Shown piece after piece: positions 10,451 to 61,039 of a DNA stretch of 64,000 bases. A program made the position numbers and the translations under genes. The number at the start of each line of letters is the position of its first letter. The first letter of the stretch is position 1. Under the pieces are notes generated by a model. It saw nothing but the letters and a program-made list of their open reading frames with translations. It did no database searches and was not told the DNA's origin. This stretch comes from Telopea speciosissima (lineage: Eukaryota > Streptophyta > Magnoliopsida > Proteales > Proteaceae). Where the stretch lies: the NCBI RefSeq assembly GCF_018873765.1, contig NC_057925.1, positions 49,116,010 through 49,180,009 on the forward strand, in the 5' to 3' direction.

Positions 10451-11125
10451 AGGTTGAGTAGACTACTGTCCAACCCACTTTCAACGGTCCTATACTGAAT
10501 ACACCATTTATATTTGGTGCTCAATATACATATGGATATCTTTCATATATCTGTGAAATATTATTGAAGTGATCTTAAGCCTTCATTGATAAGATGTATA
10601 TACCTAGACTGACTATTATTTTTTTTCTCATTTGTTAGGAGGTCATCCTTAAAGTACCAGATTGTTTTTCTTGCCAGAAAATTGTGAACGATGACACGAG
10701 AAAAAATACCATCAATTGAGCCAACTCGATCAGTATCGGTGGTTTTTTTTTAGGGTCACAACAATTTTCATTCTTATACTTTTTGACTGTTCTCAGCAGT
10801 GTTACTATGTACTAGCTAATTGTGGGAGTATACTACTGCTTGCATGGCAACTCATTTAGTTGATCCTATTTTAATTGTATTATTTTCATGCTATTAAAGG
10901 ATTTCTTTATTTGCAACAAAGACTCAACTATTTCACATACAAAGCTATAAGGAATGTTCTTAGCCAGCTTTATGAGATGAACCCAACACAGCGCTTGTGG
11001 TTTTTTATAGGCTCACAACACTTTGAATCTTAATTGAAATTTAGAAACCCCATTAACTATTCTCTTTGAAGCAAGGTTTATGTCAATGTTTTAGGGCTAC
11101 TTGTAAGTTCCAAACTCTACTTGAT

Positions 11126-11204
11126 GAGTCTATAGCTCAAGTTGGTAGAGTACTTGGAACATAAGCATGTTCCTAGGGATGGTGGTTCAAATCCACTAAG
11201 ATCT
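11126..11204 (+). tRNA. tRNA-like Pol III gene or pseudogene (left copy)
   Basis: This has an A-box-like segment tatagctcaagttggtagag, a B-box ggttcaaatcc with a T-arm pairing ggtgg/ccact, a 7-bp acceptor-like pairing around the ends, and a T-run directly after (a Pol III terminator). Where an anticodon arm should be there is an unusually long hairpin (cttggaacat / atgttcctag around a tetraloop), so no anticodon can be read. It matches 58456-58534, where the pairing is better. A tRNA pseudogene or tRNA-like small RNA are both possible. Confidence 0.45.
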
Positions 11205-12451
11205 TTTTTATTCAACGCTGCAAAACATAGTCAAATAAGATATCATCTAGATTGAAATCTTTCAGAACCATATTGTGTAATTTAATTTAATTGTCTTGTG
11301 CATGCAAATGACTGAAACAATTAAACCAAATTGTTAAAAATGACTTGAATTTAGAGAACCTTTCTAAGGTAGGGAATTATGTGCAGGATACTATTCCAAA
11401 TCAAAATCCATGTTTTCAATTTGAATTCAGCATTAAGAATGTTGGTTTCGTTCAAATACTTGGCTTTGAATAAGATTCACTATAAGGAGAAGTGTCTCTT
11501 TTTTTTATTTATTTACAAACTAAGAGGGGAGGTGCCCAAATACATGGCATGATTGGCCAATTCAGAAATCCAAAGTATAAAGCAAAAATATTACTTGTAC
11601 TTAAAATGAAAATTTGGCCAATTGATAGATGCATGATAAACCAAACAATTTTTTAGGTAGATTTAGGATGAATCCAATTGATAGACTCAGGATAACCAAA
11701 CATTTATTTGAGAAGATTCATGTCACAGAATCAAGGTAACCAAGCAGTTAATTTGGTACGATAACGGTTCCATCGATAGTCTCTCTATGGAAGTACCACC
11801 AATATTGATACATGGACCCATAGATTTACACAACCAAACACTACCTTAAAGATTCTTTGATTATAAGGCCTAGACACGTAACTCCATTCCCTCCCATATG
11901 GGGCAAGACTTTTTCTTTTTACCTTTTCAACTCTCTTTTTATGATGGAGATTAAAGATCCCAATTTATTAGTTGAATAAGGGTGCTAGCATACCTAATGA
12001 TACCAAGGTATCAGGCTGGCATGCTCCTATCTAATAACAGTAGTCCATAATACAATGGGAAAAGGTTGGGTATGCTAGCGGTACACCATATGCTAATACC
12101 CTATTTGTCTATCTCTTTCTCTTCCTCCCTTTGAGGGATAAGGGAGTCATTTCAAAGTGAAGAAGAGAGAGAGACAGACACATAGGGTGCTAGCGCGCAT
12201 ACCCATTCATACCCCTAATACAATATGACATTTGGCTGTCCTTACAAATTAACACATTAATTAGACTCATTCTAAACTATATGATCGATCTACACAACGT
12301 AGTGTAAAAGTAAAAGTAATACATGTATGAAGACATTTGAATCAAATCAGAACAAACTACCATGGCAAAATAAAACCCTTTTCCTATTACTACTACTACT
12401 GCTGCTACTACTAATCAAGGGTGATCGATGATTTAATGAAAGGAATTCCAT

Positions 12452-13723
12452 TCATTCTCTACTAATAACCCTGGCACCAACCCGATCAAGCTTGTGAACC
12501 ATTGCAGAAGCCTTCAAACCTCCTCCATGGTTGAGGAAAGCTTCCACCATTCTATATCCAATCTCTTTACCTTTCTCCATATCATCAATAACTGCAACTA
12601 TAACCTTAGGCCCAACCAACTTACACCCAAATGCTCCTTCCTCCAATGCTACTTTCATCACCTTTGCAAGGCCAGGAATTTTTGATTTACTCTCCTCCAT
12701 AACCTTCTCTAGATAATCATCATCATCATCATCACTGACCCTGTTTTTAATTATTCTACACCTCATTGCTTTCCCCTCGGCCGTCTCGCGTATCACTTCA
12801 AAACCAGGAATTAGTGGTGCATTCTGCCCGCAGTACTCACTCGAATGAGGCTTCGTCTTCGTCTTCGCATAATCTTTTTGTGTTTCCTTTATAGATGCCC
12901 CCATCTCTTGTCTACACGAGTTCTCAATGTCGATTTCTGGGTTCACAAAAATGAAAAACAATTCTTTCTCAGCCGGAAATTCAAGAGGATTTATTTCAAG
13001 AGGAGATAGGTGTCTGTGGATCATCACAAAACTTCCCATGATCACTGTCATTAAATTACCGATGAAGAAGACTTGATAATCGGGGTCCTCCCATTCCAAT
13101 AAACTCAGTCCATCGACACCCGCCTGAATTAATTCTGAGACCGACAATTTCCTGCCGAAAAGCTCATTAACAGCAACAAGAACTGCAGCATCAGTAGCAG
13201 CTTTGGATTCAATACTCCATGACGGTGGTAATCCCTTCTCGATAGAGAGGGAAAGACCGACGGTTTTGATTCCCAGCTTTGTCATGACTTGTAAAGCGGC
13301 GGAACTAATTTCAGGATAATATCCCTTGGGTATAACGCCATTAATGTCAGAGATTGCTGGTGTTCCAGGAGTAACCTCTGGATCAATGCGAACGGAAACA
13401 TAATTGCCAATACTGCCATCGATGGCGCAATTGACCTGATTCTGATTAGAGCCCGGGCCCACGTTTGCTATTGTCGCTGGGGCAAAGGATTTCACATAGG
13501 AGAATATTGGTTCCGGCTCAATTTTGAAGGCTGTCAATGGCCGATCATAATAAGAAGGGTTGCGTCTGAATGTCATCGTCGATAGCAGAGAAGAGTAATT
13601 ACATCTGAAACTAATAAGGGTAGGAAGAAGAGTTTTGGGTAGATAGTAGTGATGATAAGCTTTTCTTGTTAGAGAAGGGATACAGATGATGATGATCGAC
13701 TTCAAACTGATGAACCTCGCCAT
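12452..13723 (-). CDS. HSK: Homoserine-kinase-like protein (GHMP family), probable pseudoenzyme, copy A
   Basis: Homoserine kinase makes O-phosphohomoserine for threonine and methionine synthesis in plastids. This intronless 423-residue frame aligns with plant HSK: KSFAPATIANVGPG (78-91), NCAIDG, VAVNELFGRKL (183-193), MGSFVMI (229-235), LEFPAEKELFF and a C-terminal VGARVIS. The first 65 residues are basic and Ser/Tyr-rich, consistent with a transit peptide. The ATP-binding motif is badly altered: GLPPSWSIESKAATDAA (164-180) stands where the family has GLPLGSGLGSSAASAAA. FDFLG after motif 1 is replaced by SNQNQ, and GAGP near the C-terminus is reduced to GP. An IPG...C module occurs twice (304-322 and 349-367). 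It also carries a DDDDDD run. The long open frame argues for recent constraint, but catalysis looks unlikely. Confidence 0.75.
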   Translation of the reverse strand: MARFISLKSIIIICIPSLTRKAYHHYYLPKTLLPTLISFRCNYSSLLSTMTFRRNPSYYDRPLTAFKIEPEPIFSYVKSFAPATIANVGPGSNQNQVNCAIDGSIGNYVSVRIDPEVTPGTPAISDINGVIPKGYYPEISSAALQVMTKLGIKTVGLSLSIEKGLPPSWSIESKAATDAAVLVAVNELFGRKLSVSELIQAGVDGLSLLEWEDPDYQVFFIGNLMTVIMGSFVMIHRHLSPLEINPLEFPAEKELFFIFVNPEIDIENSCRQEMGASIKETQKDYAKTKTKPHSSEYCGQNAPLIPGFEVIRETAEGKAMRCRIIKNRVSDDDDDDYLEKVMEESKSKIPGLAKVMKVALEEGAFGCKLVGPKVIVAVIDDMEKGKEIGYRMVEAFLNHGGGLKASAMVHKLDRVGARVISRE

Positions 13724-14194
13724 TAATTCCCCCAGACCTTCAAATTCAGGTAAAAACCGTAGTGTTGCAGAGTCGGCGGCGATTTGGTGTTTAGGGTTTT
13801 TCTTTTTTTTTTTTCTTGCAGAAGTGGAAAACTAACAAAACGGCGGGAGGGAGAGAGGGAGGGAGGGGAAGGGAAGTTTAGGGTTTTTTGTTTTTTTCGG
13901 AAGAGGAAAACTAACAATATTACGGCGAAAGGGATGTAGGGTGGGAGGAGTGATTCTCTTTGTATTATAAATCTTTTGGGATTGATTCTTTTTGTACTAA
14001 ATCATCATAATAGAATAGAATCACTCTTAATATATTTTCTCCATTAGAGTCTATCCGGTTCCTCATTATTTTCTTTCTTTCTCTCATCATAATAGAATAG
14101 AATCACTCTAATAAAGGAATGTAACAACTCCTCCTCCTCCTCCTCCTCCTCACTTTCTTTTCTTTCACCGTTTCCTTTTAAAATCTCGGATCAT

Positions 14195-14361
14195 TATTGC
14201 CCCTAGTACTGGGGGGTGCTGTGCGCATCGTGCGGCACAGCACCGCCCATGTGTGCATAGTGGGCAGTGCACGGTGAGGCCCACTGTGCACACATGGGTG
14301 GTGCTGTACCGCACGATGCACATAGCACCGCCCCCAGTACTAGTACTAGGGGCGATAATTT
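14195..14361. mobile_element. GC-rich foldback element 1
   Basis: Nearly the whole 167 bp is an imperfect palindrome with arms of about 75-80 bp: gcccctagtactgggg at the left pairs with cccccagtactag and aggggc at the right. The core repeats the cgtgcggcacagcacc motif. It can fold into one long hairpin. The duplicated copy (61435-61547) has lost the outer left arm. Confidence 0.75.
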
Positions 14362-14433
14362 TCCTAAAATCTCTCATATTTCCTGCATGGGAAACTTATT
14401 ATTTAATTACGTAACTATCATTTGTGAAATCCA

Positions 14434-14607
14434 GATCCTCTACTGTTGAGCTGTCGGGCAGGACCGTGCTGCTTAGATACAGTGCTGCATGCAATGTCCG
14501 CCTTACCCCAGCCCGAGCGCTTTGCCCGAGTGGAGGTAAGGCGGTCATTGCGCACAACACCGTGTTTGGGCAGCACGGTGCTGCCGGCAGCTCGACAGTA
14601 GAGGATC
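14434..14607. mobile_element. GC-rich foldback element 2
   Basis: A 174-bp near-palindrome: gatcctctactgttgagctg at the left pairs with the inverted form at the right (ends gtagaggatc). Arms are about 75 bp, with a small centre containing ccagcccgagcgc. The copy at 61621-61782 has a shorter centre. A MITE-like transposon is inferred; no transposase is present. Confidence 0.75.
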
Positions 14608-14854
14608 CAAATTGCTCGCATATATCTTCCTTCTTCTAACCGAAAACAAAAATTGCATATATCGTCCTTTCTTCAATGCAATCTTACAATTAAGGAATGC
14701 AATTAGATTTAAGACTTTAATTCCCTTAACTAATTATTGAATGGGTATCACTTACTTAGAAGTTAGAATAAAAACAATGAGATATCTAGTAGGTCGGCAG
14801 GTCCTAACACTTAATAGATCATGTCAGTGACACGGTTATGGATTCTCTGCCGTT

Positions 14855-14926
14855 CTGCAGGGTGTGCGGTGCACATGGCACACATGGCCTCTACTGTGCC
14901 GCAGATGTGCATAGCACACCCTGCAG
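14855..14926. mobile_element. GC-rich foldback element 3
   Basis: A 72-bp palindrome from ctgcagggtgtgcggtgcac to tgcatagcacaccctgcag. Its sequence theme (gtgtgcggtgcacatggcac) is shared with foldback element 1. Copy at 62031-62102. Confidence 0.65.
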
Positions 14927-15399
14927 TACAACAAAGGTTTGTTACTTAGAAACATGTCCTCGGCATAAATCCAAACTTCCCTTAACAAAATTACTTGGAC
15001 CAATGGATAGCTAAGGAAAAAGGAAAGGAACATAAATACAGGACCGTTTTCTTTTCTTAAATGAACGAAGTTCCTTTCCCTAGTCTCCGTAAGTTTTGGC
15101 TTGGAGAATTTTATTTCACAAAATTTGAATTTTAAAATTTTACATGTTGAAAAGTTTCCCAATGTTTGTTTTTTGGTGGAAAAGTTTTCCCTAGGCTCTG
15201 TACGTTTCCGTTTGTTTAAAACTTCTATTTCTTTGTCATGTTTCAATTTTAAAAATATATATATATTTTTTATATTTTTGTTACTAGATCAAATTTCTAG
15301 ACAAAAAAATATTGTGCAACCCATAATATTTTTTATTTTTGGGCCAGAAAAGAAACAAATACATTTGTTATGCACAATGATTTTTGTTCCTAGAACTCT

Positions 15400-15540
15400 T
15401 ATAAAAAGAGTGCCATAGTGCACGAGGTTCCTACTGCTGCAGGGTCTGGGAGGGGCAAATGTATGTAGCCTTACCCCTTGCTTCCTAGGAGAGACTATTT
15501 AAAAGTTTTGAATCCGGAACCAACAAGTTGCAACAACGCA
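15400..15540 (-). mobile_element. Au-type SINE, degenerate (left copy)
   Basis: Read on the minus strand it contains a B-box remnant ggttccggattc, then ggggtaaggct, catttgcccctcccagac, cctgcagcagtagga, acctcgtgcact and an end rich in T. This order is the body of the Au SINE found across flowering plants. The tRNA-like head is eroded. The same copy lies at 62575-62715. Confidence 0.75.
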
Positions 15541-15580
15541 ATTTATAAATTTTCAAAAATGCCATTGAATACTCAAAAAT

Positions 15581-15755
15581 TTGGTGGAGGTGATGGTGGT
15601 GGTGGCAGTGCTGGCAATGGTGGAGGAGGAGGTGGTGGTGACAATGTTGGTGGTAGTGGTGGAGGTGGAGGTTGTGGCGGCGGAGGTGTTGGTAGTAGTG
15701 GTAACAATGGAGGTGGTGGTGGTGGAGGTGGTAGAAATGGTGGTGGTTGAAGTCA
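15581..15755 (+). repeat. (GGT)n-type simple repeat
   Basis: A purine/T trinucleotide tract of ggtggtgga type that is open in several frames on both strands and gives false Gly-rich and Thr-rich reading frames. A shorter version is at 62754-62905. Confidence 0.85.
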
Positions 15756-15996
15756 CATTGGAGGTGGTGTTTTATTTTGAACGTGAAATTAGTGCTTTGC
15801 CAATCAAATTAACCATTGTCTCATTAAAGAGCAACCACCCCTCCCCCCCTTTTATTTTTCCCTTTTGTTTCTGAAACAGAGAATGTTCCTAATTAAAGCT
15901 TTTGTTTCTTTATTTTTCAAAAATACGTTGTAACTTGTTCATTCCTAGGAACAAAAAAAAAAAAAAAAAAAAAACAGAGAAATAGACAAACAAAGT

Positions 15997-16354
15997 GCCC
16001 GCTTGATAACCTTACGGGTGTTTCTGTTTTGGTTATGTGCTGAGAAACAGCAAAACAGTTTTTTTATTTTCTATGCTGAGAAACCGTTTTTGACCCGCTT
16101 GGTAAACCTGTTCTTGGAAACAAGCGAAACCTTTTTTTTTTTAAAAAAAAAAATCAACAAAGGGATATGTTTGGCACACTTTCCAAATTTTTAGCCAAGA
16201 AACGACAGACCATGTCTAACATGTTCTGTCAAAAGTCTTCCAGGGAGCATAAATTTTGATTTATGTTTTAAAAAACAGTCACAAAAATCAATTCGTTATC
16301 AAGCGATTTTTAGGTGTTTTTCCGTTTTGTTTCTCGTAAGGTTATCAAGCGGGC
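15997..16354. mobile_element. TIR-type MITE (left copy)
   Basis: Bounded by perfect 20-bp inverted repeats: gcccgcttgataaccttacg at 15997-16016 and its complement at 16335-16354. The interior is full of gtttctg/gaaacag-type inverted segments. No coding capacity. The right-copy relative at 63141-63524 keeps about 28 extra interior bases next to the right end. The superfamily is not certain; hAT is plausible. Confidence 0.8.
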
Positions 16355-19195
16355 TCAAAAGTGTTATCATGTCGGGCCAAATAGTGAAATCATTGATCGA
16401 AGAGAAAGCAAACATACTAGATCCTATCTTTGTGGTGTTAAGAAGGGGTTTTCCCATCTTCAAAGATCTCAAAAGACAAAAAAGAATAATGCGAATTTGT
16501 CAGTACGCTGACATTTGTGGTGTGATCCCCCCTTTTTGCGACATCGTGGGAGGTACACTATGGTGCTGTGGTTGGGATGTTGCGGCGTTGTTGTTGGGAC
16601 ACCGCTGGAGGTACAACCTTTCAACTTTGGTTCCAATTTTGGGGTTTTTGGGTTAGTCTGGTTTTTGGATTGTGATGTCAATGATCATCCGTGTCCTGTT
16701 GTCATTATTTACCAGGAGAGGTGGTCAATTTCCAGCGTCTATACTTTTGTACAACCACGAGAAGAGATTTCTATATTTCGCATCTAATTAAATTGTGTTG
16801 TGAGAATATGATAATCCCTTCTATGAATTATTAGAACTTTTTAAATGTTGGTTCCAGTATCCATATTGGCCCAGGCCTCAATATTGGTCTTTTTATAAGA
16901 AAAAAAATGGAGAGTCCCCAATCAAAATATTTTCTAAATGGAATTTTCTCTGTCTCAATTAGATAACCTTCCCTAGATAATCCTTAATAGAGATATTTTC
17001 AAGCCTGTAAATAATTCAAGTTTATGAGTGTTGTAATTGTAGGGAATCTTTCGACTCTAATTTACTTGTAAGGGTGATCCATAAATATATAAGTCCTTCT
17101 TACCTTCGTAATTATAATTAATATATTTATGTGATAAACCATCATATCTATAGTGTTTTTTAAAATTTTTCTTTTTGTTTTGATAATCAGTTGGTTGGTT
17201 CGGTTTGAATTGATTTCAATTTGTTACTAGGCCAACTCAAAATCAAACTGTGAAAGAAAGTTTCAGTTTTGGCTTGGTCTGGTTTGGTTTCTTATCAGTT
17301 TTGTTTTGTTTCTGGTTTTTTATTTTATTTTATTGGTTTGTAATCAGGCTAGTGTCAGATATGGTTAGGTTCGATTTCGAGTTTTCCTATACATAAGGAA
17401 ATTAATAAGAAAATCCTAATTGTATTGGATTTTCAGTTTCTTATCACGTTATTATTAGTCTAGTCTCGATTTTTATTGGGTTTGGCTTGGTTTTCAGTTT
17501 CAATCCATTCATTTCAATCGGTTCGGTTTCCACTTGGTTCCATAACACGCCAACCCAAAACAAAACGAATATAATTAGTTTGGATTGAACCGACTAGTTT
17601 CGATTGGTCCAATCATTTTTGAGCTAAACTTTGACAACCTCAATTGTAGACATGCTTCCTTTTTGTCTAATTATAACCAAAACTGATGTTCAAGTCAAAT
17701 TTGAATCAACATTTGGACTAGCTTAAAAAGATGCAAATATAAATGGAACGATTGATACATATTAGATCGTCAACATAATTTGTTGGGCTAATTGCATTTG
17801 ATGTATATGTCCATGAAACTCAATTTAATTTGATTAAATTAATTAATACATTTTCATATTCATGTGCTTCTTGTGATTATTTTGATAATGTGTAATTGTC
17901 CACTTTTACTGTTATTAGTTCACAACTATGAACAAATTTCGACACTCTGTTCTAGGGTTGCCACATTGTATATTTCTTAATGGATATTAGTAAGAAAATA
18001 TAAATGTGGGCAATTAATTGTGTTGAATATTGATCCATTGGAATTCCCGATTTGGTTTACCGCCATTGTATTCACAAGGGGAATTTCGATAGTTACTTTT
18101 TTTCCGTACCTGAGAGACACTTATTGTTGCGTTTATATTTCGTGTAATCGTGGTGATCCAATGGCTGATGTCTACTAACAGGACTGACTATACACCAGAC
18201 GCTCATTGTATGTTATATATGCATGAATGAGGGTGTTCCTCAATATGATTTCACACGCCGATAGGGTGAACATCTAGATATGTGAGTGATTGCTTTGGAT
18301 GATGATCGATCGAAATCCGGGGCCTTGGTAATATTAGTTGAATATTATTCTTTAAAGAAGTTTCAATAATTTTGATAAATCATTGGATTTAATAAGCACT
18401 ATTAATTATACAGTGTAGTTGCAATTTTGGCAGGACGTTTGTTTATATACTTGTGAGGGTGCACTGTGGACGTTGATAGTGTGGGGAGAAAGTGTAATGA
18501 AAGTTCTATCATATGGGGTTTTCACGTTATGCTTTTTGTATAGATGTCCTTTTATGTAATTAAAAAAATTTAAAATGTAAAAGATTTTCTTTTGTGCAAA
18601 TATGGATAACTTAAAGGGTGATCTTGTTAGGCCACATTCATTCCTTTTTTATTATTTCGGTTCCACAAGTTTCACACCACACTCTACTTCCTCTAGTTAT
18701 GGCTTGTATGGTCGCCCCCCTTCGAAGGGACTATCCTTCTAAACTAGTGTGTTTTGCAGAGCAAAAGGACTATCCTTTTAGACTTTTACGTTTTGCAAAG
18801 TGATTTTTTTAAAAGTTTGTAGCCCTGTTTCAATTCAATCTTAAGGAAAAGCTCCATTGACAAACTTTCAAGTAAAGGGCCTTATGAATGTTATAGAATG
18901 ATGGATTAGTACACAGTTCTCCATATAGGACCAGTATTCAAAAATTCATTTAATTCTAATCATAGTACTAGGGAAAAGGCTCGTCACACTAGCGATGTGC
19001 CCAGCCTTGTGTTTGCCTCTCTCTCCCCACCGTCCTAGTGAAAAGATACACCTGCCCTCCCTTGCCTCTCCCCTCCCTCCCATGTGACTATTGAGTATTG
19101 CCCACTAGCTTACTTGCTCCAACCATTGTGTCTACCCTTTTCCTTGCCTTCTCCTAGCTTACCTGGAGCAAGAGTTGTGCTTATCCCTTCTCCAT
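16355..19195. other. Intergenic, AT-rich, no gene recognised
   Basis: 16355-16840 is the last part of the duplicated block and is also present at 63525-64000. A 109-codon open frame there (16327-16656) starts inside the MITE and has no family match known to me. 17170-17640 holds gttcggtttgg-type low-complexity sequence that may be an eroded DNA transposon. The rest shows no gene, RNA or clear repeat. Confidence 0.45.
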
Positions 19196-22100
19196 AGTAT
19201 TAATCAAGCTTAAAGTATCGTTATTGGGTATCGTATCAAAAAAGGTGATTCTAAGACATTCGTATCATATCAAGAGACACAAGATATACTAAAGATACAC
19301 ATAGAAATGTTTAGGATACATGCAAAAAACAATTTTGAAGCATAAATGAGTAATATGTAAAATATATCATGTATAAAGAGGAAAACAAAGTACGACGAGA
19401 CAAGTGTAGTCGATTAATTATGTATACTAAATGAAGTTTCTTACTTTTACTAATACACACACACACCCACACACACAAAATGACATTAAAAATCAATATT
19501 TAAGCAAAAATCAAAGTTACGATAGAAAATTGTTCTTGCGCAAATCTAGTTTCGTTCCTTGATTGTAGGTTGTTTAATTATCAAATGATGATGAAACCAA
19601 CATTACTAAAGTTGCTTTTGCCTGTAGAAACAAGGAATTATATTGATTTTTGCCAAAACAAAATTGATTACAATAGCTTACAGGAGCTTTGATAAGTGTT
19701 TTAAATCATTGATTGAGTTATATAGTTTATAAGAAATGCATCAAGTGAATTGATAAGTATCAATCAATACATTATACAATCCCATGGGCTGTACTTGTAA
19801 GCTTTGATAATTAATGCATTATATTAGATCCATTCCAAACTATATGATCCACACAAAATAATGTAAAAGTAAAATTAATGCATATATGATGATAATGTTA
19901 TTTGAAATAGAAAAAACTACTGCAAATTAAAACCCATCTATCTCAATTCTCAAGTAGATCAGGAAATTAATTAAAGTTGTTTAAGAGGAGGAGTACTAGT
20001 ACTACTACTACTAATCAATGATGATATATTAAGAACCAAAGAAATAAATCTATGACCTAATTAAATGGAAAATACTTTGCTTCCACAAGGTTGGCAGCCA
20101 AGAAAATAGAATAATTCACTTCCCTTTTGGGTTCATATATAGATACCTTCTTAGGTTTTAGTAATTTGTAAAATACCTTTTAAGATCCCATTTCCTAGGC
20201 TTCCCTGCTACAGTAACAGCAAAATTTCGTCCAATATGGCTGTGAAGAAATAACCCTAGCACCAACCCGATCAAGATTATGAACAACTGCAGAAGCCTTC
20301 ACACCTCCATGGTTGAGGAAAGCTTCCACCATTCGATTTCCAATCTCCTTAGCCTCCTCTTCATCATCAGTGACTGCAACAACCCTCATTTTATTTCCAA
20401 TCTCCTTACTCTCTTCCCCATCTACAACCCTAGTTCCAATCAACTTACAACCTAATACTCCTTTCTCCCATGCCGCCTTCATCACCGCTGCAAGACCAGG
20501 AATTTTTGACGTCCTCTCCAGCTTCTCATACGGGCCCATCATGTCCAGTTGCACATCCAAGCCATCTACTTGCTTATCCCAAAATATTCTACACCCGAAC
20601 GCTCCCTCAGCTTTCTTCCCCACTTTAAGACCAGGAATCAATGACTCACACTTTGGCCAACCCCTATTAATCCTTTCAGGTCCATGCATCTGAGATACCA
20701 TACGACGACAAATCCAAAAATCATTATCCGTTATCCTAACGGTTCTCAATTTTCCTCGAGTTTCGATTTCTGGGGTTACTAGAACGAAAAACAAATCCTT
20801 CTCAGCAGGAAATTCAAGAGGAATTATTTCAAGACGCACGTAGTTGTCGATCATAACAAATCCTCCCATGAATGCTGCCGTTAAATTTTCGATGTGACAA
20901 TCTTTATAGTATGGCAATACAGAGAGACTTGCTTGGATTAAATCTACGACCGACAATTTCCTTCCAAAAATCTCATTAACAGCAACAGCAGCTGCAGCAG
21001 CATTAGCAGCACTCGATCCAATTTTCCCTAACGCTGATAATCCCTTCTCGATAGTGAGGGAAAGACCGACGGATTTGATTCCCAGTCTTTCCATGACGGA
21101 TCTTGCTGCTATTGCAGCGGAATTAAAAGAAGGGTCGAGCGTGTCGTAATTCCATAGCGGGTCGACCTCGCTCTCAACGGAATTGATTGATACTTTTGAA
21201 GGAGGAACGGGGTGGTCAGAAATTTCCACGGTAACATAATTGCCAAGCCCATCGATCGCGCAATTGATTACATCATCATAGTTCGGGTCCCCCACGTCAG
21301 CTATCGTCGCCGGTGCAAAGGATTTCACAGAGGAGAAAATGGGTTCCGGCTCAATTCTGAAAAACTTCGATGATGGCCGACAAGAATTACATCTGAACTT
21401 TGATAGCGGAGAAGAAGAATTGGATCTAAAAAACCAAAGGGACGGCAAAACAGAAGAAGAAGAAGAATTGTATTTAAAACTAAGGTTACGATGAGTTTTG
21501 GGTATTAAGTACTGACGGGCTTTTGTTGCTGTACCTCTACTGATGAACTTCTTCAAACTTAACGCCATTAATTCCACCCCACCCCGATACGGATGGGTAT
21601 CGTGTTGCAGAGTCGGCGGGGATTTGGTTTTAGGGGTTTTTTTTTGTAGAAGTGGAAAACTAACAATACTGCGGGAAGGAGGAACGGAGGGGAGGAGAGG
21701 GGAGGGAAGGGAAGAGAAAACATATAAAAATCTTTTGGGATTCTCTTAATTTGTAGTAAATCCTAATAGAATCACTCTAATAAAGGAAGGTAACAACTCC
21801 TCCTCATTCTTTCAACTAATAAGATAAGATTGTCATCCCACTTTTCTTCTTATTCTCACACGCCTCTACTCTTTCTCATCTTATATTAAATACGTGGAAA
21901 GATCTATGCCTTCTCATGTGGGAAATCACATCTCTCAAGGATGACCCTTCATAGGATAAGATTTGTCGGAAAATTAAGGGTTGTTGAGTCTTTTGAGAGA
22001 AGTTTCAGAAATAGAAGATTGATTTTGGGGAAACGATTTGGGGGAAGATGAGGGCATCACGTAATTATGCGCTAGCAAGGGCATTTTAGTAATTAGATTG

Positions 22101-22385
22101 GGTTAGATTCCTAAAAACAAATAGTGAGGTTAAAAGGGTTTTGTCAAATTAGGTTACGGTAAAAAGGTCTTTTCATATTATGAACAAATAAATCAGGACA
22201 ATTAGGTCTTTTTACATTTAGAAAAGATAGAAGAAAGGGTAGTTTGGTCAAGTTTTTAGCACTTAACGCCTAAACTTAACATTGTGGGCTTAAATGATTT
22301 TAGGGGGTAAAATAGGGATGGAAAGTAGAATTTACCAGGGTGGTACGTGGACTTGTCAGAGCGTTAGGGGTATGAGGAATATTCA
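19196..22385. repeat. Block B of the B/C segmental duplication
   Basis: Matches 33593-38130 in the same orientation: 3' flank and last third of the kinase-like gene (19196-20690 with 33593-35313), and upstream flank (about 21785-22385 with 36736-36870 and 37870-38130). Block B keeps the whole gene. The 3' flank also shares an (ACT)n tract and the sequence around it with copies A and D, so all four kinase-like loci share ancestry outside the gene. Confidence 0.85.
20195..21577 (-). CDS. HSK: Homoserine-kinase-like protein, copy B
   Basis: An intronless 460-residue frame, longer than the roughly 370 residues of Arabidopsis HSK. An alternative start is Met-4. The N-terminal 75 residues are Ser- and Arg-rich with no acidic residue after the start, fitting a plastid or mitochondrial transit peptide. 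Recognisable parts are KSFAPATIADVG (84-95), GLSALGKIGSSAANAAAA (179-196), VAVNEIFGRKL (198-208), MGGFVMIDNY and VGARVISS. The P-loop keeps GSSAA but has GK for the usual GSG. Motif 1 reads GDPNYD instead of GPGFDF, and the C-terminal GAGP motif is gone. An IPGL...C module occurs twice (314-329 and 359-377), and a second local repeat (SKEIGNKM / AKEIGNRM, about 390-418) is absent from copy C. This is the better kinase candidate of the family, but activity is still doubtful. Confidence 0.75.
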   Translation of the reverse strand: MELMALSLKKFISRGTATKARQYLIPKTHRNLSFKYNSSSSSVLPSLWFFRSNSSSPLSKFRCNSCRPSSKFFRIEPEPIFSSVKSFAPATIADVGDPNYDDVINCAIDGLGNYVTVEISDHPVPPSKVSINSVESEVDPLWNYDTLDPSFNSAAIAARSVMERLGIKSVGLSLTIEKGLSALGKIGSSAANAAAAAVAVNEIFGRKLSVVDLIQASLSVLPYYKDCHIENLTAAFMGGFVMIDNYVRLEIIPLEFPAEKDLFFVLVTPEIETRGKLRTVRITDNDFWICRRMVSQMHGPERINRGWPKCESLIPGLKVGKKAEGAFGCRIFWDKQVDGLDVQLDMMGPYEKLERTSKIPGLAAVMKAAWEKGVLGCKLIGTRVVDGEESKEIGNKMRVVAVTDDEEEAKEIGNRMVEAFLNHGGVKASAVVHNLDRVGARVISSQPYWTKFCCYCSREA

Positions 22386-22882
22386 GTGCATTTTAGAGGA
22401 TTTGGCTCCTGTCCTACCGTGGCGGGAGCTGGATGGTCCAGCACCCCCTTAAGATGGAGACACATGGCTTTTAATACATCCAACGGTCAAAAAAGGCATG
22501 GGCATAATGTAATCCCTTTCGCCTCTCACTCTCTCGTTCAACGAAACCCGACCCGAATATTTGACCATTTTGAAACCCATAGATTAAAACTCTTGTTTGT
22601 ACTTTCTCTCGGCTCTTCCCCCTTTCTAATAGTCTCCATCTTTCTTGAGGGAACTCAGCTCAAACCCTAGGTGAAAGGCTCCATCTTCCCATTTAAACGG
22701 CGATCGGTGACGGCGAGGCTAACCAGGTAATCTGTAGAGATATCCTTCGCAGCCAGAAGCAAAACCAACAAAGTTGAAACCATTAAAGGGGGTCACAAGG
22801 CCCACTGCGGGCCTGCGGCACAGCAGCAAGGCAGAGAGAGGCGTATGACCTATTGAGGGGTGAGCGAATAGGATTTGGTTCC

Positions 22883-24157
22883 TGATGTGTCATAAAATCC
22901 CCCAACCAACCAAAAGCTACCACGTAAACGTACTGGAACTGAATCCGAGGCCGAGGCCGAGCACTGAGACCAAGGCCGAGGCCGAGCACTAAAACCGAGG
23001 CCGAGGCCGAGCACTGAAGCCAAAGCCGAGGTTGAGCACTGAAGCCGAGGCCGAGGCCGAGCTCGCACAAGTCAGCCTGGGCCGAGGCCGAGCATTGAGA
23101 CCGAGGCCAAGGCCGAGCTCGCACAAGTCAATCGAAGTCGAGGCCGAGCATTGAAGCCAAAGTCGAGGCTGAGCACTGAAGCCGAGGCCGAGGCCGAGCT
23201 CGCACAAGTCAGCCTGGGCTGAGGCTGAGCACTGAGAGCGAGGCCGAGGCCGAGCTCGCATAAGTCAGCCTGGGCCGAGGCCGAGCACTGAGACCGAGGC
23301 CGAGGCCGAGCTCGCACAAGTCAGCTGGGGCCGAGGCCGAGAACTGAGACCGAGGCCGAGGCCAAGCACTGAAGCCGAGGCCGAGCATTGAAGCTGAGAC
23401 TGAGACAGAGCACTAAAGCCGAGGCCGAGCACTGAAGCTAAGGCCGAGGCCGAGCTCACACAAGTCAGTCGGGGCTGAGGCCGAGCACTGAAGTCGAGGC
23501 CGAGGCCGAGCTCACACAAGTCAGCCGGGGCTGAGGCCGAGCTCTGGGCCGAGCTCACACAAGTCAGCCATAAACTCCTGACCGAGCATACACAGGACAT
23601 CCTAGGCCGAGCTGACTGCCGAGACCGACCTAACAGGCCGACCTCTCAGGCCGACCTCCCAGGCCGAGGTGACTGCCAAGACCGACCTACCAGGCCGACC
23701 TCTGAGGCCGAGCCCTCCTCCACAGAGGCTACCATAGCGCCCCACCGGGGATCGCGGGGCCACGTCAGCACATCCCGAGAATCACGGGATAAGGATCGAG
23801 CCACGATCCCAGCGCAATACAAAATCATAATTTACATGGACTCTTACCTTAATAAGAGCCCGACCCCAAAAATAGCTCTCCACTCCGCTCTACGCGAGAG
23901 AGCCTTCCAAAAGAAAGACTCCTACCATACTAGGACTCTCCCAACCGCCTCATCTCATCCTCACTCTATAAATACCCAGGTATGGAACACCATTCATCAT
24001 CTCACTTTTACTAGCAGTTACGCTGTTGCACTGGTAATCTAACTTTAGCATCGGAGAGTCCTAGGCCGGAGCCACACCGGCTCTCTTGTGCTCATCACTT
24101 GGTCTTTGCAGGCTCATCCGTGGGAGAACCAAGCATCGGAGATTTCCACACGCAATA
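22883..24157 (+). repeat. 5' LTR of gypsy element 1
   Basis: Starts tgatgtgtcataaaat and ends cacacgcaata. Its first half (about 22940-23570) is a minisatellite built on the 9-bp word gaggccgag and longer units containing gctcgcacaagtcagc. The unique half holds a tataaataccc TATA region near 23966. It is longer than the 3' LTR because the minisatellite is expanded. Confidence 0.85.
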
Positions 24158-24229
24158 GATTTGGTGCCGTCTGTGGGAACGACATCAGCAAGTCGTTGTC
24201 GTTTCTACCAACCTCAAGAGCAGCAACAA

Positions 24230-26970
24230 TGGTGCACACGAGATCAGGTCAACATGGCTCAACCTCTCGAGGAGATGAGTTACAACCTAATAAGCAGGCG
24301 AGACAATCGCCACCCCCGGAGACGTCGTGGCAAGGGGCGGCAGGAAGACCCCCACAAGGGGGAGGTGCTTCGCGTAATGTGGGTACCGATGTCAATCCCA
24401 CTCCACCAGTGAACGGGGGCAATGGGGAAAGTGTACTGGACGCGGCGGCGGTAGACCAAACTCAGGCCGAGCCGAATGAGTTGAACTTACCGCCGCCACC
24501 ACTTTTGCCAGAGATTTTGGATCCTAAAGGGCCGGTGAATAATCGACAGGTCATGGATTTGCAATTGCAGATGCTTCAAACTAACGAGATGTTGCGCACT
24601 TTCATGACCCAGATGGCTCAGGGAGGGCTAATGGATCAGCCACCGGTCGGGCCCCCGCGGGCACTCGCTCGTGAAATAGAAGATCCACGACAGCACGGTG
24701 ATCGACAGAGGGCCGAGCTTAGCCGAGCCGTGTCATTCCATCCCCAAGGCCGAAGAACTCCACCTCCACGACTAAGTGGGAGTAATCGGCGAGATGAATG
24801 AGGACATCGTCGAAGCCCGAGGGCCGTAGAGGCCATCGAGCCAGCAGGGTCAGCTACGCGGAGATTGATCTTTTCTGGACGACTTGGTGATGGTGAAGGA
24901 CCGAGGAGACACCAAGGCCGACGTGAAGAGCCCCGAGTGCGACGCGCTACAAGGGAAGAAGAGGATTCTCGCCATAGCCCTCGGCGACGAAGCCCACTTC
25001 GCCGAAGAGATGGACAAAGGAGCCCACATGAGTCTGACCACAGAGATGACGAGCGCACTAGGAGAAGTGATGTTGGCCGAGCCGACCATAATGGTCGGCC
25101 TCGTCAAAACGAGCGAGAGGATCAGGTTGGCCGACCTCATCAGGATGAGCTGGCCGACCATAACGACCGACTTCAGCAGGAAAAAGCGCAAGACCCCATC
25201 CGAGCTGAGGAACAAAATGGCCGAGCTCCAGAGTCTGAAATGGAGAAAAAGCTAAGGGAGCTGACCGAGCAAGTTGAAGGGCTTAAGAAACAAGCAACTT
25301 CGGATGCCTACTCACTGGTCGGGCGTCACCCCTATCCGCCTGAGATCATGACAGCACCGCTTCCAGTAGGGTTCAAACCACCTCCCTTTGACCGGTATGA
25401 TGGGACTACCGACCCGATCGACCACATCAACTACTTCAACGCAATGATGACCATGTACAGCGGGATTGAGATTGTTTCTTGCCGAGCTTTCCCCTCGTCC
25501 CTAAAGGGTGCGGCAACTTCTTGGTTCTCATGGCTGCCGCCAAACTCTATTACAAGCTTTGCCCAACTTTGCCGAGCCTTCGTCACGTGTTTCCAAAGTA
25601 GCATGAAGCATAAGAAGACGACGGTGAACCTCCTCAGCGTGAAACAGAGGTCGAACGAGTCGATCCGATCATACGTCTCCAGGTTCAATAAAGAATCCTT
25701 GGATGTTAGAGACCTGGATGAGGCCACAGCTCACACCGCAATGAGCAATGGACTTACACATGAAGACCTGATCAAGGACTTGGCTCGAAAGCTGACCAAA
25801 AGTATGGCCGAGCTCCTCGACAGGTGTAACGAGTTTGCGAACATGGAAGACGTTCTCCAAGCACGCAAGGGGAATGAAAACGAGGGAGAGAATAAAAGGT
25901 CAACGACCGATGACCGAAGGAATGAAAAGCGGACCAAGACTGATCGCAGAGTCGAGAGCTCAGACCGAGCTCAGAGTCCCCAGTACACTCCCTTAAACAG
26001 GTCGCGGAAGGAAATTTTGATGCAAATTCAAGACGACGGGTACATACGCCGACCTCGACCGATGCAAGCTGGGTCATCCCAAAACCCCAACAAGTACTGC
26101 CTATTCCACAAGGACGAAGGCCACGACACCGAGGAGTGCTACCAGCTGAAACGAGAAATCGAAGAGCTGATCAGAGCTGGGCACTTGAAGCGATACATCA
26201 AGGGGAGCCGAGAAGAACATGGAGGTCGACGACCCGAAGACCACGATCAAAGGAAGCCTGAGCCGAGGTCTGAGAGCCGGAGGACCGAGCGCGACGAGGA
26301 CAAGGTCTGAGCCCGAAAAGAAGGATGACGGATCCGGGCCGAGCAATGAGAAAGGAGCTCCCATATACACCATCCTTGGAGGGCCCGGACATGAATCCAC
26401 CCGAAAAGCCAAGGCGAATGCACGATTCGTCGGAGTCGCGGAGATGCCGAGCAAAAGGCCGAAGGTATAAGTTTACCTCACGATGATGCTTTGGTGGTAC
26501 AGGTAGAAATAGCGAGGAGACCCGTTCAACGGGTATTGATCGATACAGGAGCATCCGTGGATCTTATGTCGCTGGACGTGTATCGACAGTTCGGCTTCAG
26601 GGATGAGGCGCTCAAACCAGAAGCCACCTCACTCCATAGATTCTCGAGGGCCGCCGCCACGATCAAGGGGTCGATAGACCTCCTGGTCACGTTTGGGCAA
26701 GCTCCATACCAAGCGACGATCCAAGTCAAGTTCATGGTGGTACGGTCGGTGGTGGCCTTCAACGCCATACTTGGTCGCCCATCGGTCACCGCCCTCCAAG
26801 CTATCATCTTGCCAATACACTTGAAGATGAAATTCCCCACAGAGAACGGCATCAGAGAAATCCGAGGTGATAAAAAGAGAGCTCAAGAGTGCTACGCCGC
26901 CTTTGTAAAGCAAAACAAAGGAAATGTCCGAGGAATGGCTATGTGCGTTGAGCACCTCCCTGAAGACTAG
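24230..26970 (+). mobile_element. gag and protease region of gypsy element 1 (fossil)
   Basis: The Retrotrans_gag domain is recognisable around 25.38-25.75 kb (GTTDPIDHINYFNAMM, LKGAATSWFS, RSYVSRFNKESLDVRDLDEA). A Cys/His stretch (YCLFHKDEGHDTEECYQLK) lies near 26.1 kb. The aspartic protease has its active-site motif LIDTGASVDLMS near 26.54 kb. Charged low-complexity linkers rich in Arg and Glu separate the parts. The region is broken, so it is listed as a part of the element and not as a gene. Confidence 0.8.
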
Positions 26971-27227: not shown

Positions 27228-27760
27228 CGGGCGGACCAAGTCGTAAGACCAGTCCTCATAGACCTGGCCGACTTTAAAGATCGACACTTTTAGGACGGAC
27301 AACAACCAAGTCATCGGCAACCAAGTCGTAAGACCGGTCCTCATAGACCTGGTCGACCTCAAAGACCGACACTCAAAGGACTGACGACAACCAAGTCATC
27401 AGCAACTAAGTCGTAAGACCGGTCCTCATAGACCTGGCCGACCTCAAAGACCGACCCTCATAGGCCGGCAACCAAGTCGTAAGACCGGTCCTCATAGACC
27501 TGGCCGACCTCAAAGACCGACCCTCATAGGTCGGCAACCAAGTCGTAAGACCGGTCCTCATAGACCTGGCCGACCTCTAAGACTGACCCTCATAGGTCGA
27601 CAACCAAGTCGTAAGACCGGTCCTCATAGACCTGGCCGACCTCTAAGACCGACCCTCATAGGTCTGCACCCAAGTCGTAAGACCGGTCCTCATAGATCTG
27701 GCCGACCTCAAAGACCGACCCTCATAGATCGGCAATCAAGTCATAAGACCAGCCCACAAA
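27228..27760 (+). repeat. 66-bp tandem repeat array in gypsy element 1
   Basis: About eight units of roughly 66 bp, each with caagtcgtaagaccggtcct and gacctggccgacc. It lies between protease and 3' LTR, the hypervariable zone in which Tat-type elements are known to grow tandem repeats. Confidence 0.85.
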
Positions 27761-28275
27761 GACTGGCCGACGTCTGAACCAACAAGAGCAAACTCTCCCC
27801 ATGGCCGAGCTGAACAAAGTCTAAAACTAAGCTAAGGCATTACGCTCAGCTATGGAGGCTGCTCGGCCACAACATCAAATGGAACAACATACACAAGGAA
27901 AAGAAGGCTAAAATTGCCGAGCTAAAACAGTTAGACAAATTTTGAGAAACGAAATTTTCATTGATTAAAGAACCGACTGCTCGGCACAGTACATAGAGAG
28001 GCAGCTCGGCCTGGTACATACCAAAAAAAAAAAAAAAAAAAAGGAAGAGGAAGAGTTCAGCGTGATTCAACGATCCAAATCAAAAGACTATTTAAAATCC
28101 CGAGCATCATCATTACGCCGAGTACTGTGGCACAGACACCCCAACTGATAGACAGTACAATGTAAAATCACCGAAGGAAAAGAGCTCGGACTTAGCCTCA
28201 GAACAGAACCGTTAAGCGGACCAAAAGATGACACTCATCAAGGACTAGCCGAGCCTTGATGAGTGGGGGGGCCTG

Positions 28276-34849: not shown

Positions 34850-35313
34850 TTAAGAGCCCATTTCCTCGGCTTCAATGCTACAGTAACAGCGAAATTTGGT
34901 CCAATACGGCTGTGAAGAAATAACCCTGGCACCAACCCGATCAAGACTGTGAACAACTGCAGAAGCCTTCACACCTCCATGGTTGAGGAAAGTTTCCACC
35001 ATTCGATTTCCAATCTCCTTACCCTCTTCATCATCAGTGATTGCAACAACCCTATTTCCAATCAACTGACAACCCAATACTCCTTTCTCCCATGCCGCCT
35101 CCTTCACCTCTGCAAGACCAGGAATTTTTTACGTCCTCTCCTGCTCCTCATCCGGCTCCATCAGCTCTATTTGCAGTTCCGCTTCTCCTTGCTTAGCCCA
35201 AAATATTCTACACGCGAATATTCCCACAGCTTTCTTCCCCAATTTAAGACTAGGAATCAATGGATTACAATTCGTCCAATCCCTATTAATCCTTTCAGGT
35301 CCATGCATCTGAG
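34850..35313 (-). pseudogene. Truncated homoserine-kinase-like pseudogene, copy C
   Basis: Only the C-terminal third remains. Reading on the minus strand: the INRDW segment and SLILNLGKKAVG-like segment near 35290-35230, a stop where copy B has the Ser of TSKIPGL (35130-35132), then LAEVKEAAWEKGVLGCQLIG, VVAITDDEEGKEIGNRM and VGARVISSQPYWTKF. It reads past the copy-B stop to end AEEMGS. It lacks the small local repeat present in copy B, so that repeat is either a gain in B or a loss here. Homology stops abruptly at 35313. Not functional. Confidence 0.8.
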
Positions 35314-35635
35314 ATGTTTAGTGTTAAACATACATAAATATTCAATATAAGTTCAGTTAAAGAAGGAAAGAAATCAAAATTTCTCTGCATAGTATATAAC
35401 TTCAGAACTCACGAGCTTGGCTGATTTAGAGGACACGAATGTTGTGAAGCAATTCAAAGCAAGAAGTCTGATAAGAGCTCCACAAAATTACTTCTGAGCT
35501 ACCAAATCAGCTTCCATTTTGTTGTTGCAGCGGATCTTACTTCGTTTTGGATCCAAAAATCTAGTGGGTGGAAGTAAGGGAAAGTGAGAACAGAGGAAAT
35601 AAATATCGGAGAAAGAAGAAGAACAGAGACCTCCA

Positions 35636-59775: not shown

Positions 59776-61039
59776 TCATTCTCTACTAATAACCCTGGTA
59801 CCAACCCGATCAAGCTTGTGAACCATTGCAGAAGCCTTCAAACCTCCTCCATGGTTGAGGAAAGCTTCAACCATTCTATATCCAATCTCTTTACCTTTCT
59901 CCATATCATCAATAACTGCAACTATAACCTTAGGCCCAACCAACTTACACCCAAATGCTCCTTCCTCCAATGCTACTTTCATCACCTTTGCAAGGCCAGG
60001 AATTTTTTATTTACTCTCCTCCATAACCTTCTCTAGATAATCATCATCATCATCACTGACCCTGTTTTTAATTATTCTACACCTCATTGCTTTCCCCTCG
60101 GCCGTCTCGCGTATCACTTCAAAACCAGGAATTAGTGGTGCATTCTGCCCCCAGTACTCACTCGAATGAGGCTTCGTCTTCGTCTTCGCATAATCTTTGT
60201 GTGTTTCCTTTATAGATGCCCCCATCTCTTGTCTACACGAGTTCTCAATTTCGATTTCTGGGTTCACAAAAATGAAAAAACAATTCTTTCTCAGCCGGAA
60301 ATTCAAGAGGATTTATTTCAAGAGGAGATAGGTGTCTGTGGATCATCACAAAACTTCCCATGATCACTGTCATTAAATTACCGATGAAGAAGACTTGATA
60401 ATCGGGGTCCTCCCATTCCATTAAACTCAGTCCATCGACACCCGCCTGAATTAATTCTGAGACCGACAATTTCCGGCCGAAAAGCTCATTAACAGCAACA
60501 AGAACTGCAGCATCAGTAGCAGCTTTGGATTCAATACTCCATGACGGTGGTAATCCCTTCTCTATAGAGAGGGAAAGACCGACGGTTTTGATTCCCAGCT
60601 TTGTCATGACTTGTAAAGCGGCGGAACTAATTTCAGGATAATATCCCTTGGGTATAACGCCATTAATGTCAGAGATTGCTGGCATTCCAGGAGTAACCTC
60701 TGGATCAATGCGAACGGAAACATAATTGCCGATACTGCCATCGATGGCGCAATTGATCTGATTCTGATTAGAGCCCGGGCTCACGTTTGCTATTGTAGCT
60801 GGAGCAAAGGATTTCACATAAGAGAATATTGGTTCCGGCTCAATTTTGAAGGCTGTCAATGGCCGATCATAATAAGAATTGCGTCTGAATGTCGTCGTTG
60901 ATAGCAGAGAAGAGTAATTACATCTAAAACTAATAAGGGTAGGAAGAGTTTTGGGTAGATAGTAGTGATGATAGGATTTTCTTGTTAGAGAAGGGATACA
61001 GATGATGATGATCGACTTCAAACTGATGAACCTCGCCAT
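59776..61039 (-). pseudogene. Homoserine-kinase-like pseudogene, copy D
   Basis: Nearly identical to copy A over its whole length and flanks. Two disabling changes are seen: one extra A in a run near 60274-60280, which shifts the frame after LEFPAEKELFF, and a TCA-to-TAA stop at 60007-60009 in the SKIPGL segment. It also has SPG where copy A has GPG in motif 1 and one fewer Asp in the acidic run. The degenerate P-loop GLPPSWSIESKAATDAA is the same as in copy A, so that loss predates the duplication. Confidence 0.85.

What the first reader, a model, noticed from the sequence alone, without database searches (positions are those of the whole stretch)
12452..21577. Homoserine-kinase-like paralogues with long open frames but eroded GHMP kinase motifs
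Copies A (423 residues) and B (460 residues) keep full-length intronless frames and a transit-peptide-like N-terminus. Yet the P-loop (A: GLPPSWSIESKAATDAA; B: GKIGSSAANAA), the FDF part of motif 1 and the C-terminal GAGP motif are altered or lost. The P-loop loss is shared by A and D, so it is older than their duplication while A stayed open. This suggests a pseudoenzyme (regulatory, substrate-binding or dominant partner) or slow neutral decay.
Basis: partly seen in the sequence, partly recalled or inferred. Interest (0 to 1): 0.7.

Follow-up and report, generated by a model that had tools for sequence, protein, structure and literature searches.

The report
Paired dead homoserine kinase-like gene family
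This plant genome keeps one normal homoserine kinase gene plus at least eleven intact relatives that have lost the enzyme's catalytic parts yet still read through without a break, often as a side-by-side or fused pair, which suggests they were kept for a new, non-catalytic job.

Summary
A (12452-13723, 423 aa) and B (20195-21568, 457 aa, not 460) are full-length homoserine kinase (HSK)-like frames with broken GHMP motifs. They belong to a genome-wide family: one canonical HSK plus 11 distinct open loci (13 domains). All 13 domains lack the catalytic Glu and Asp, the P-loop core and GAGP, and share an internal duplication, so catalysis was lost before A and B split. B and A form a unit in the order B->A; on C5 two copies are fused into 782- and 802-aa frames. 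Other evidence disagrees: about 17 nonsense changes expected in strictly aligned columns against none in the open copies; in-frame indels only, against 20% in flanks; B coding DNA 3.7-fold less diverged than its flanks in a segmental duplication; B replacements more conservative than all 300 neutral simulations; and two relics of canonical HSK that show real decay. Best reading: a retained, probably plastid-targeted, fast-evolving pseudoenzyme pair that binds rather than phosphorylates. Positive selection is only suggested, in A-type. Partner and expression are untested. The plant is probably Telopea speciosissima.

The parts
12452..13723 (-). Copy A: A-type HSK-like open frame, 423 aa
13184..13234 (-). 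A, degenerate P-loop segment GLPPSWSIESKAATDAA
   Evidence: HSK S157, G158, S165 lost in 13 of 13 domains; coordinates counted by hand
12749..12820 (-). A, first copy (R1) of the duplicated LIPG...GCRI segment (approximate limits)
   Evidence: R1 vs HSK motif z 8.9, 0 of 500 shuffles reach it; limits by hand
12611..12687 (-). A, second copy (R2), carrying the altered motif 3 (GAFGCKLVGPK, no GAGP; approximate limits)
   Evidence: R2 vs HSK motif z 11.4, 0 of 500 shuffles; G328 and P329 lost in 13 of 13
20195..21568 (-). Copy B: B-type HSK-like open frame, 457 aa
20996..21043 (-). B, half-kept P-loop segment GLSALGKIGSSAANAA
   Evidence: coordinates counted by hand
20581..20642 (-). B, first copy (R1) of the duplicated segment (approximate)
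   Evidence: R1 z 9.0, R1-R2 z 7.1
20435..20509 (-). B, second copy (R2; approximate)
   Evidence: R2 z 11.3
13724..20194 (.). Spacer of the B->A unit; much of it alignable to the spacer at C10:38.9M and in part to that at C3:10.48M
34868..35317 (-). Copy C: B-type C-terminal fragment; the 5' half is missing relative to its tandem duplicate B_L032
59779..61039 (-). Copy D: A-type copy in the duplicated segment, broken by a 1-nt insertion and a stop; its three other indels are 3 nt each
10483..22883 (.). Segment carrying B->A, duplicated about 47 kb away (blocks 57809-69921 in window coordinates, the end lying outside the window) at 92-95% identity
29606..39745 (.). Second part of the segmental duplication, carrying copy C (partner blocks within 70023-88380, outside the window)

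Best explanation
A and B are two members of a retained family of HSK-derived pseudoenzymes. An HSK duplicate lost its catalytic residues and duplicated an internal LIPG...GAFGC segment. It then duplicated in tandem into B and A, which travelled together as a B->A unit to several loci and fused into one two-domain protein on C5. The products keep the GHMP fold and an N-terminal presequence that looks plastid-targeting. They most likely act as a two-subunit binding protein, not a kinase: either an interaction partner of plastid HSK or aspartate-pathway metabolites, or bait for a fast-changing outside partner. Shown by sequence: family, shared losses, internal duplication, B->A order and fusion, frame retention. 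Model-based: the fold. Inferred: plastid location, B-A contact, binding role, partner.
Against: Mean omega within A and B is not below 1. No transcript or protein evidence. Broken copies are a lower bound: C, D and the truncated B at C10:38.9M were missed by the HMM search, so some ascertainment of open copies is possible. Protein-mode genome searches did not complete. Lower CDS divergence of B/L031 could partly be gene conversion: synonymous sites are also low, 8/307, p 0.053. For A the hydrophobic-polar swap test (121 of 300) does not differ from neutral, nor does the invariant-column count for A (44 of 300) or B (103 of 300). The Mantel test of B and A distances is weak, r 0.78, 10 of 120 permutations. 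At C10:51 B and A are 48 kb apart and inverted, and B_L032 has no partner that I found. Direct R1-R2 similarity is weak in some A-type domains. The AF2 alignments contained 33 and 27 bacterial HSKs, which favours an HSK fold.
Confidence: 0.7

Rival explanations
1. Slow neutral decay: the paralogues are dead genes that happen to be still open.
For: Mean omega about 1 within both clades; with gamma site rates neutral omega=1 is not rejected for B (p 0.18) and only mildly for A (p 0.019); copies C and D, a truncated B at C10:38.9M and a fragment on C690 are broken; broken copies are under-counted.
Against: About 17 (strict columns) to 57 (columns with at most 2 gaps) nonsense changes expected and none in the open copies; in-frame indels only, against 20% in flanks; CDS dip in a recent duplication; conservative replacements in B; HSK relics at similar divergence are full of frameshifts.
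Confidence: 0.13
2. Re-purposed enzyme: the active site was rebuilt for another reaction, as in GHMP-related enzymes that are not kinases (RFAP synthase, ForT).
For: The fold is kept; N204 (MjHSK Asn141 by recalled numbering) is kept in 13 of 13 domains; some GHMP relatives do other chemistry (PMC6787355 and PMC8183095, seen only as search listing and abstract starts).
Against: I did not search for, and so did not find, a new invariant polar set; the P-loop core, catalytic Glu/Asp and GAGP are lost, and the HSK stretch of about 55 residues before LIPG has no clear counterpart and falls in low-confidence parts of the B model.
Confidence: 0.12
3. Regulatory partner of canonical HSK: A or B joins HSK in mixed oligomers and lowers or tunes its activity, so homoserine rises. 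This is one functional version of the best explanation.
For: Descent from HSK; a presequence of plastid type sharing an FRCN motif with HSK; loss of HSK (DMR1) raises homoserine and pathogen resistance in Arabidopsis (PMC4258817, abstract start and passages).
Against: No interaction data; a slowly evolving single-copy HSK (omega 0.16 on the branch to it) would not by itself drive fast change in the partner.
Confidence: 0.2
4. Decoy or other arms-race protein: the pair binds pathogen molecules or another fast-changing partner. This is another functional version of the best explanation.
For: Omega about 1.2 after the split against 0.16 on the branch that leads to HSK; A-type sites 144, 145, 148 and 149 under inferred diversifying selection lie in one modelled helix (137-150), spaced i, i+1, i+4, i+5; birth-and-death copy turnover.
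Against: Significant in A only, and lost when columns within 6 of a gap are dropped (p 0.11); B not significant (p 0.22). Four further A sites with P above 0.5 (126, 285, 286, 341) lie elsewhere, 285-286 in a gap-rich loop.
Confidence: 0.15

Closest known systems
Plant plastid homoserine kinase (HSK, DMR1, ThrB-type)
   Same: Direct sequence relatives: 46-52% identity over 283 gap-free columns, same fold by model, similar presequence end.
   Different: P-loop core, catalytic Glu/Asp, Thr248 and GAGP lost; a stretch before LIPG replaced; LIPG...GAFGC segment doubled; B->A pair or fusion; many copies; omega about 1.
XOL-1 of Caenorhabditis (GHMP-fold sex regulator)
   Same: GHMP fold, no detectable ATP binding under standard conditions, low sequence conservation between species, regulatory not metabolic (PMC11349215, passages).
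   Different: XOL-1 has little sequence likeness to any non-nematode gene; here descent from HSK is plain and copies are paired.
Gal3p of yeast (galactokinase-like inducer)
   Same: A GHMP family member that works as a regulator (mentioned in a passage of PMC11349215; details recalled).
   Different: Gal3p as recalled keeps ligand (ATP, galactose) binding; here most ligand-contact residues are lost.
Ordinary plant duplicated pseudogenes
   Same: Duplicates of a conserved gene with mean dN/dS near 1.
   Different: Frames stay open over dS up to 0.42 in 11 loci; true HSK relics in the same genome (C6, C7) do not.

Membership tests
Homoserine kinase, equivalog (TIGR00191, NF002288) | Score over the curated cut-off | tested here: not met
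   A 35.7 and B 62.4 vs 168.25 (TIGR00191); A 73.6 and B 98.4 vs 194 (NF002288). Canonical HSK 219.1, over the TIGR00191 cut-off
Homoserine kinase, equivalog (TIGR00191, NF002288) | P-loop GSGLGSSAAS | tested here: not met
   S157, G158, S165 lost in 13 of 13 domains; S162 lost in 6 of 6 A-type and 1 of 7 B-type
Homoserine kinase, equivalog (TIGR00191, NF002288) | Catalytic Glu and HADN motif | tested here: not met
   E194 and D203 (33 of 33 bacterial HSKs) lost in 13 of 13; H201 kept in 5 of 7 B-type and 2 of 6 A-type; N204 kept in 13 of 13. The catalytic role of these residues is recalled
Homoserine kinase, equivalog (TIGR00191, NF002288) | GAGP/GSGP motif 3 | tested here: not met
   G328 and P329 lost in 13 of 13; G326 kept in 13 of 13
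Homoserine kinase, equivalog (TIGR00191, NF002288) | Phosphorylates homoserine | not testable with these tools
   needs an enzyme assay
GHMP superfamily | PF00288 domain at or over gathering score | tested here: met
   B 34.0 vs 22.3; A 22.3 vs 22.3, at the threshold
GHMP superfamily | GHMP fold | tested here: met
Retained pseudoenzyme | Catalytic residues lost, scaffold residues kept | tested here: met
   17 lost and 19 kept in 13 of 13, 27 mixed
Retained pseudoenzyme | Selection keeps the frame | tested here: met
   caveat: broken copies under-counted
Retained pseudoenzyme | Mean dN/dS below 1 | tested here: not met
   0.92 and 0.93 in strict columns, p 0.58 and 0.63 vs 1; only the recent pair B/L031 is low, 0.36
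Retained pseudoenzyme | Expression | not testable with these tools
   no transcript data held
Neutral pseudogene | Random stops and frameshifts accumulate | tested here: not met
   11 distinct open loci; but C, D, a truncated B and a fragment are broken
Neutral pseudogene | dN/dS about 1 | tested here: met

The most novel reading that the evidence does not exclude
A lineage-specific, plastid-targeted, two-subunit pseudoenzyme (HSK-like B + A, fused on one chromosome) acts in immunity: it either brakes the plastid HSK from inside, giving a built-in, adjustable version of dmr1-type resistance, or is bait for pathogen molecules, and its surface helix is changing under selection while its fold is held.
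Probability: 0.15. Interest if true: 0.8.

Novelty: new variant of a known kind. Interest (0 to 1): 0.55.

Why it matters
Pseudoenzymes made from GHMP kinases are few, as far as I recall (XOL-1, Gal3p). A multi-copy plant example with a living single-copy parent, a recurring two-gene unit and two natural gene fusions would be a good system for how an enzyme fold becomes a binding protein. HSK is a reported disease-susceptibility gene in Arabidopsis, tomato, potato and basil (PMC4258817, PMC3688610, PMC8968627, PMC8525366; titles and abstract starts), so a family of dead HSKs bears on that question. It is also a plain example where mean dN/dS near 1 would file a probably retained family as pseudogenes.

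Tried and rejected
Retrocopies: rejected as the source of A and B. About 100-250 bp upstream is alignable between A, B and the fusions, and units share spacer DNA. With the 2 kb upstream of HSK only two short hits (71 and 50 bp, with B_C3) were seen.

Four B-type fragments (C1:41.18M, C1:69.59M, C2:9.15M, C3:28.24M) first counted as decayed copies: all four share one repeat element. In the three fetched with both ends it has inverted ends (about 240-263 bp); 9-bp flanking repeats were seen in two, and the third lies in poly-A and is uninformative. They were dropped from the gene counts.

Strong positive selection from columns with at most 2 gaps (2dL 166 for A and 137 for B): rejected as inflated by gap-rich loops. 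Strict columns with gamma site rates leave A at 2dL 17.6, p 1.5e-4, and B at p 0.22. 0 of 28 M1a+gamma bootstraps reach the A value (largest 5.35), but the bootstrap fits ran fewer iterations (25-30) than the observed fit (60), and one came out at -0.46. Two other MAFFT modes agree (p 1.4e-4, 4.7e-4) but a 6-column margin does not (p 0.11 twice, 126-128 codons; B p 0.082). So it is only suggestive.

Codon models are my own code; its M0 branch lengths equal IQ-TREE's GY+F3X4 values to three decimals.

In one search my pattern picked the wrong stretch as R1 in 3 of 13 domains (A_L040, A_L039, A_F_L030); the alignment shows the first repeat in all 13. Direct R1-R2 scores are near chance in A_F_L029 (143 of 500) and weak in A_C3 (43 of 500).

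Related loci: a first genome-contig scan found no relative; the second kept the best 80 of 571 confirmed candidates. Of these 80 I considered 38, dropped 5 for stops, used 33 and 27 for the second model. No plant collection was on hand, so conservation in other Proteaceae is untested. Six of the 16 PF00288 matches (C10:26.3M, C1:86.3M, C11:6.1M, C11:34.9M, C10:49.99M, C8:58.2M) were not examined; they are not among the TIGR00191 matches. Literature: searches for homoserine kinase with tandem duplication and genome assembly, pseudoenzyme, Proteaceae, and Macadamia, and homoserine kinase-like with pseudogene or paralog (10 of 7,025 listed), showed no report of this family in the held library; the Telopea genome paper was not among the listings.
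Full report
WHERE IT LIES. The window is G000:C10:49116010-49180009 of an 822,943,500-bp plant assembly in 1287 contigs. Telopea speciosissima is listed with 823 Mb and 11 scaffolds (table passage in PMC13080361); C6 is 69.0 Mb, which matches an N50 of 69.0 Mb that I recall for that assembly. The species is therefore probable, not proven.

CHECK OF THE OBSERVATION. A (12452-13723, -) is 423 aa and B (20195-21568, -) is 457 aa. Both are homoserine kinase relatives, but below the cut-offs of both HSK models tested; they reach the general GHMP domain cut-off.

THE FAMILY. A genome search with TIGR00191 gave 20 match rows: 1 canonical HSK over the cut-off (C10:6.85M, 380 aa, motifs intact), 12 rows on open A/B genes, 3 rows on two HSK relics (C6, C7), 4 on fragments inside a repeat element. 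The 12 open genes are 11 distinct loci, as C690 is almost identical to C10:51.33M. They hold 7 B-type and 6 A-type domains, C690 left out. C, D, a truncated B at C10:38.9M and a fragment on C690 are broken and were not found by that search, so broken copies are under-counted.

SHARED ANATOMY. All 13 domains have lost the P-loop core, E194, D203, T248 and GAGP; FDFLG is altered in all (G80 lost in 13 of 13, its Asp lost in 6 of 6 A-type but aligned with an Asp in 7 of 7 B-type); and the HSK stretch of about 55 residues before LIPG has no clear counterpart. With 33 bacterial HSKs and the plant HSK as yardstick, 19 conserved positions are kept in 13 of 13, 17 lost in 13 of 13, 27 mixed. All also carry a doubled LIPG...GAFGC segment that HSK has once: in the 10 of 13 domains where my pattern picked the right stretch, R1 has z 4.9-10.4 against the HSK motif; R2 has z 10.0-13.1 in 13 of 13; the alignment shows both in all 13. 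So the ancestor of A and B was already without the catalytic set. Residue roles (Glu130, His138, Asp140, Asn141 of M. jannaschii HSK) are recalled; they fall on columns invariant.

PAIRS AND FUSION. Codon tree: A and B are separate clades (100%); within each, the C5 copies part first, then C3, then C10:51, then C10:49, with support 79-100. B lies upstream of A on the same strand at C10:49 (two tandem copies, the second with A broken: L031 and D), C3:10.48M and C10:38.9M (B truncated); at C10:51 they are 48 kb apart and inverted; no A partner was found for B_L032. On C5 two copies (782 and 802 aa), inverted and 24 kb apart, are one frame of B domain plus A domain, the latter without most of its presequence. 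Both fusions are open although they differ by dS 0.10 (B part) and 0.15 (A part). The Mantel correlation of B and A distances is weak: r 0.78, 10 of 120 permutations.

SELECTION. dS is 0.42 between A and B and about 1.5 between either and HSK. In a branch model omega is 0.16 on the branch that leads to HSK (which includes the unsplit paralogue stem), 1.15 on the A and B stems and 1.19 within. Within A and B in strictly aligned columns omega is 0.92 and 0.93, not different from 1; with gamma site rates a neutral model is not rejected for B (p 0.18) and mildly for A (p 0.019).

WHY NOT NEUTRAL. (1) Nonsense changes expected if neutral: 56.8 over columns with at most 2 gaps, 16.7 in strict columns, 12.5 on terminal branches alone; none in the open copies. 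(2) Indels: 35 of 179 flank indels are multiples of 3, whereas 47 distinct gap intervals in A and 47 in B (not independent, and seen only in copies chosen as open) are all in frame. (3) In the roughly 47-kb segmental duplication the B/L031 CDS differs at 19 of 1356 and the rest at 170 of 3279 (p 1.4e-10); A/D at 22 of 1263 vs 72 of 2328 (p 0.016), and D has three 3-nt indels, one 1-nt insertion and a stop. Gene conversion could add to this. (4) Replacements are more conservative than under neutral simulation: B mean BLOSUM 0 of 300, hydrophobic-polar swaps 0 of 300; A 9 of 300 and 121 of 300; invariant columns 103 of 300 (B) and 44 of 300 (A), not significant. (5) HSK relics on C6 and C7, 18-20% different from HSK, have 9 of 12 and 8 of 11 indels out of frame (a few of these at ragged alignment ends), and stops.

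FAST SITES. With gamma site rates, A-type strict columns favour a class of about 5% of sites with omega about 12 (2dL 17.6, p 1.5e-4; 0 of 28 bootstraps). Eight sites have P above 0.5; of these 144, 145, 148 and 149 sit in modelled helix 137-150, spaced as one face; the others are 126, 285, 286 and 341. The signal holds with two other aligners but not with a 6-column margin, and is not significant in B. It is a lead only.

HOW IT MAY WORK. Presequences of 57-85 residues (12 open genes) have 21-36% Ser+Thr and 0-3 acidic residues, and 10 of 12 share an FRCN motif with HSK; plastid import is inferred, no predictor was run. With the catalytic set gone and the fold, frame and pairing kept, binding is the simplest function. 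A fused B-A protein suggests B and A act together. HSK loss raises homoserine and resistance in Arabidopsis (PMC4258817, abstract start and passages), so a role beside HSK or in defence is a natural test, not a result.

COMPARED WITH KNOWN SYSTEMS. It is a GHMP-fold family but not homoserine kinase by the tested features. What it works like is closer to XOL-1 (no ATP binding detected; PMC11349215 passages) or Gal3p. I saw no report of it in the held library, which lacks most subscription papers.

Noticed in passing
L127:3733-5692, L046:about 3517-5732, L044:2697-4556, L026 (C1:41.18M, C3:28.24M, C2:9.15M, C1:69.59M): A Mutator-like, probably Pack-MULE element of about 2 kb with inverted ends of about 240-263 bp (AGGGTAAAG...) and 9-bp flanking repeats in two of three copies checked carries a fragment of a B-type gene (residues about 133-311) and has spread it.
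   Followed up: partly
L029:1035-3383 and L030:1975-4383 (C5:15.29M and 15.32M): Two inverted copies of a natural fusion of a B-type and an A-type domain in one open frame (782 and 802 aa), 24 kb apart.
   Followed up: yes
L037 (C7:17.22M) and L045 (C6:31.32M): Two relics of the canonical HSK sharing several lesions (38-, 1- and 22-nt deletions at matching places and a stop at codon 93), so they probably descend from one dead copy; C6 also has a 576-nt insertion.
   Followed up: partly
window 7498-39745 against blocks within 39736-41154 and 57809-88380: Segmental tandem duplication of about 47 kb at 92-95% identity, with unequal loss of gene copies between the two halves.
   Followed up: partly
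L035:3082-4557 (B_C3): This B-type copy carries a long Asn-Glu / Lys-Glu / Asp-Glu repeat insertion between the two copies of the duplicated segment.
   Followed up: no
window 22938-23711, 27235-27771, 43745-44003, 50422-51205, 52641-54107: Minisatellite arrays inside the high-GC blocks; a frame at 24229-24801 looks gag-like to my eye, suggesting LTR retrotransposons, not tested.
   Followed up: no
G000:C690 (L042, L043): Small 17-kb contig almost identical in its A-type gene to C10:51.33M, perhaps an unplaced haplotype; it also holds a second A-type C-terminal fragment.
   Followed up: no
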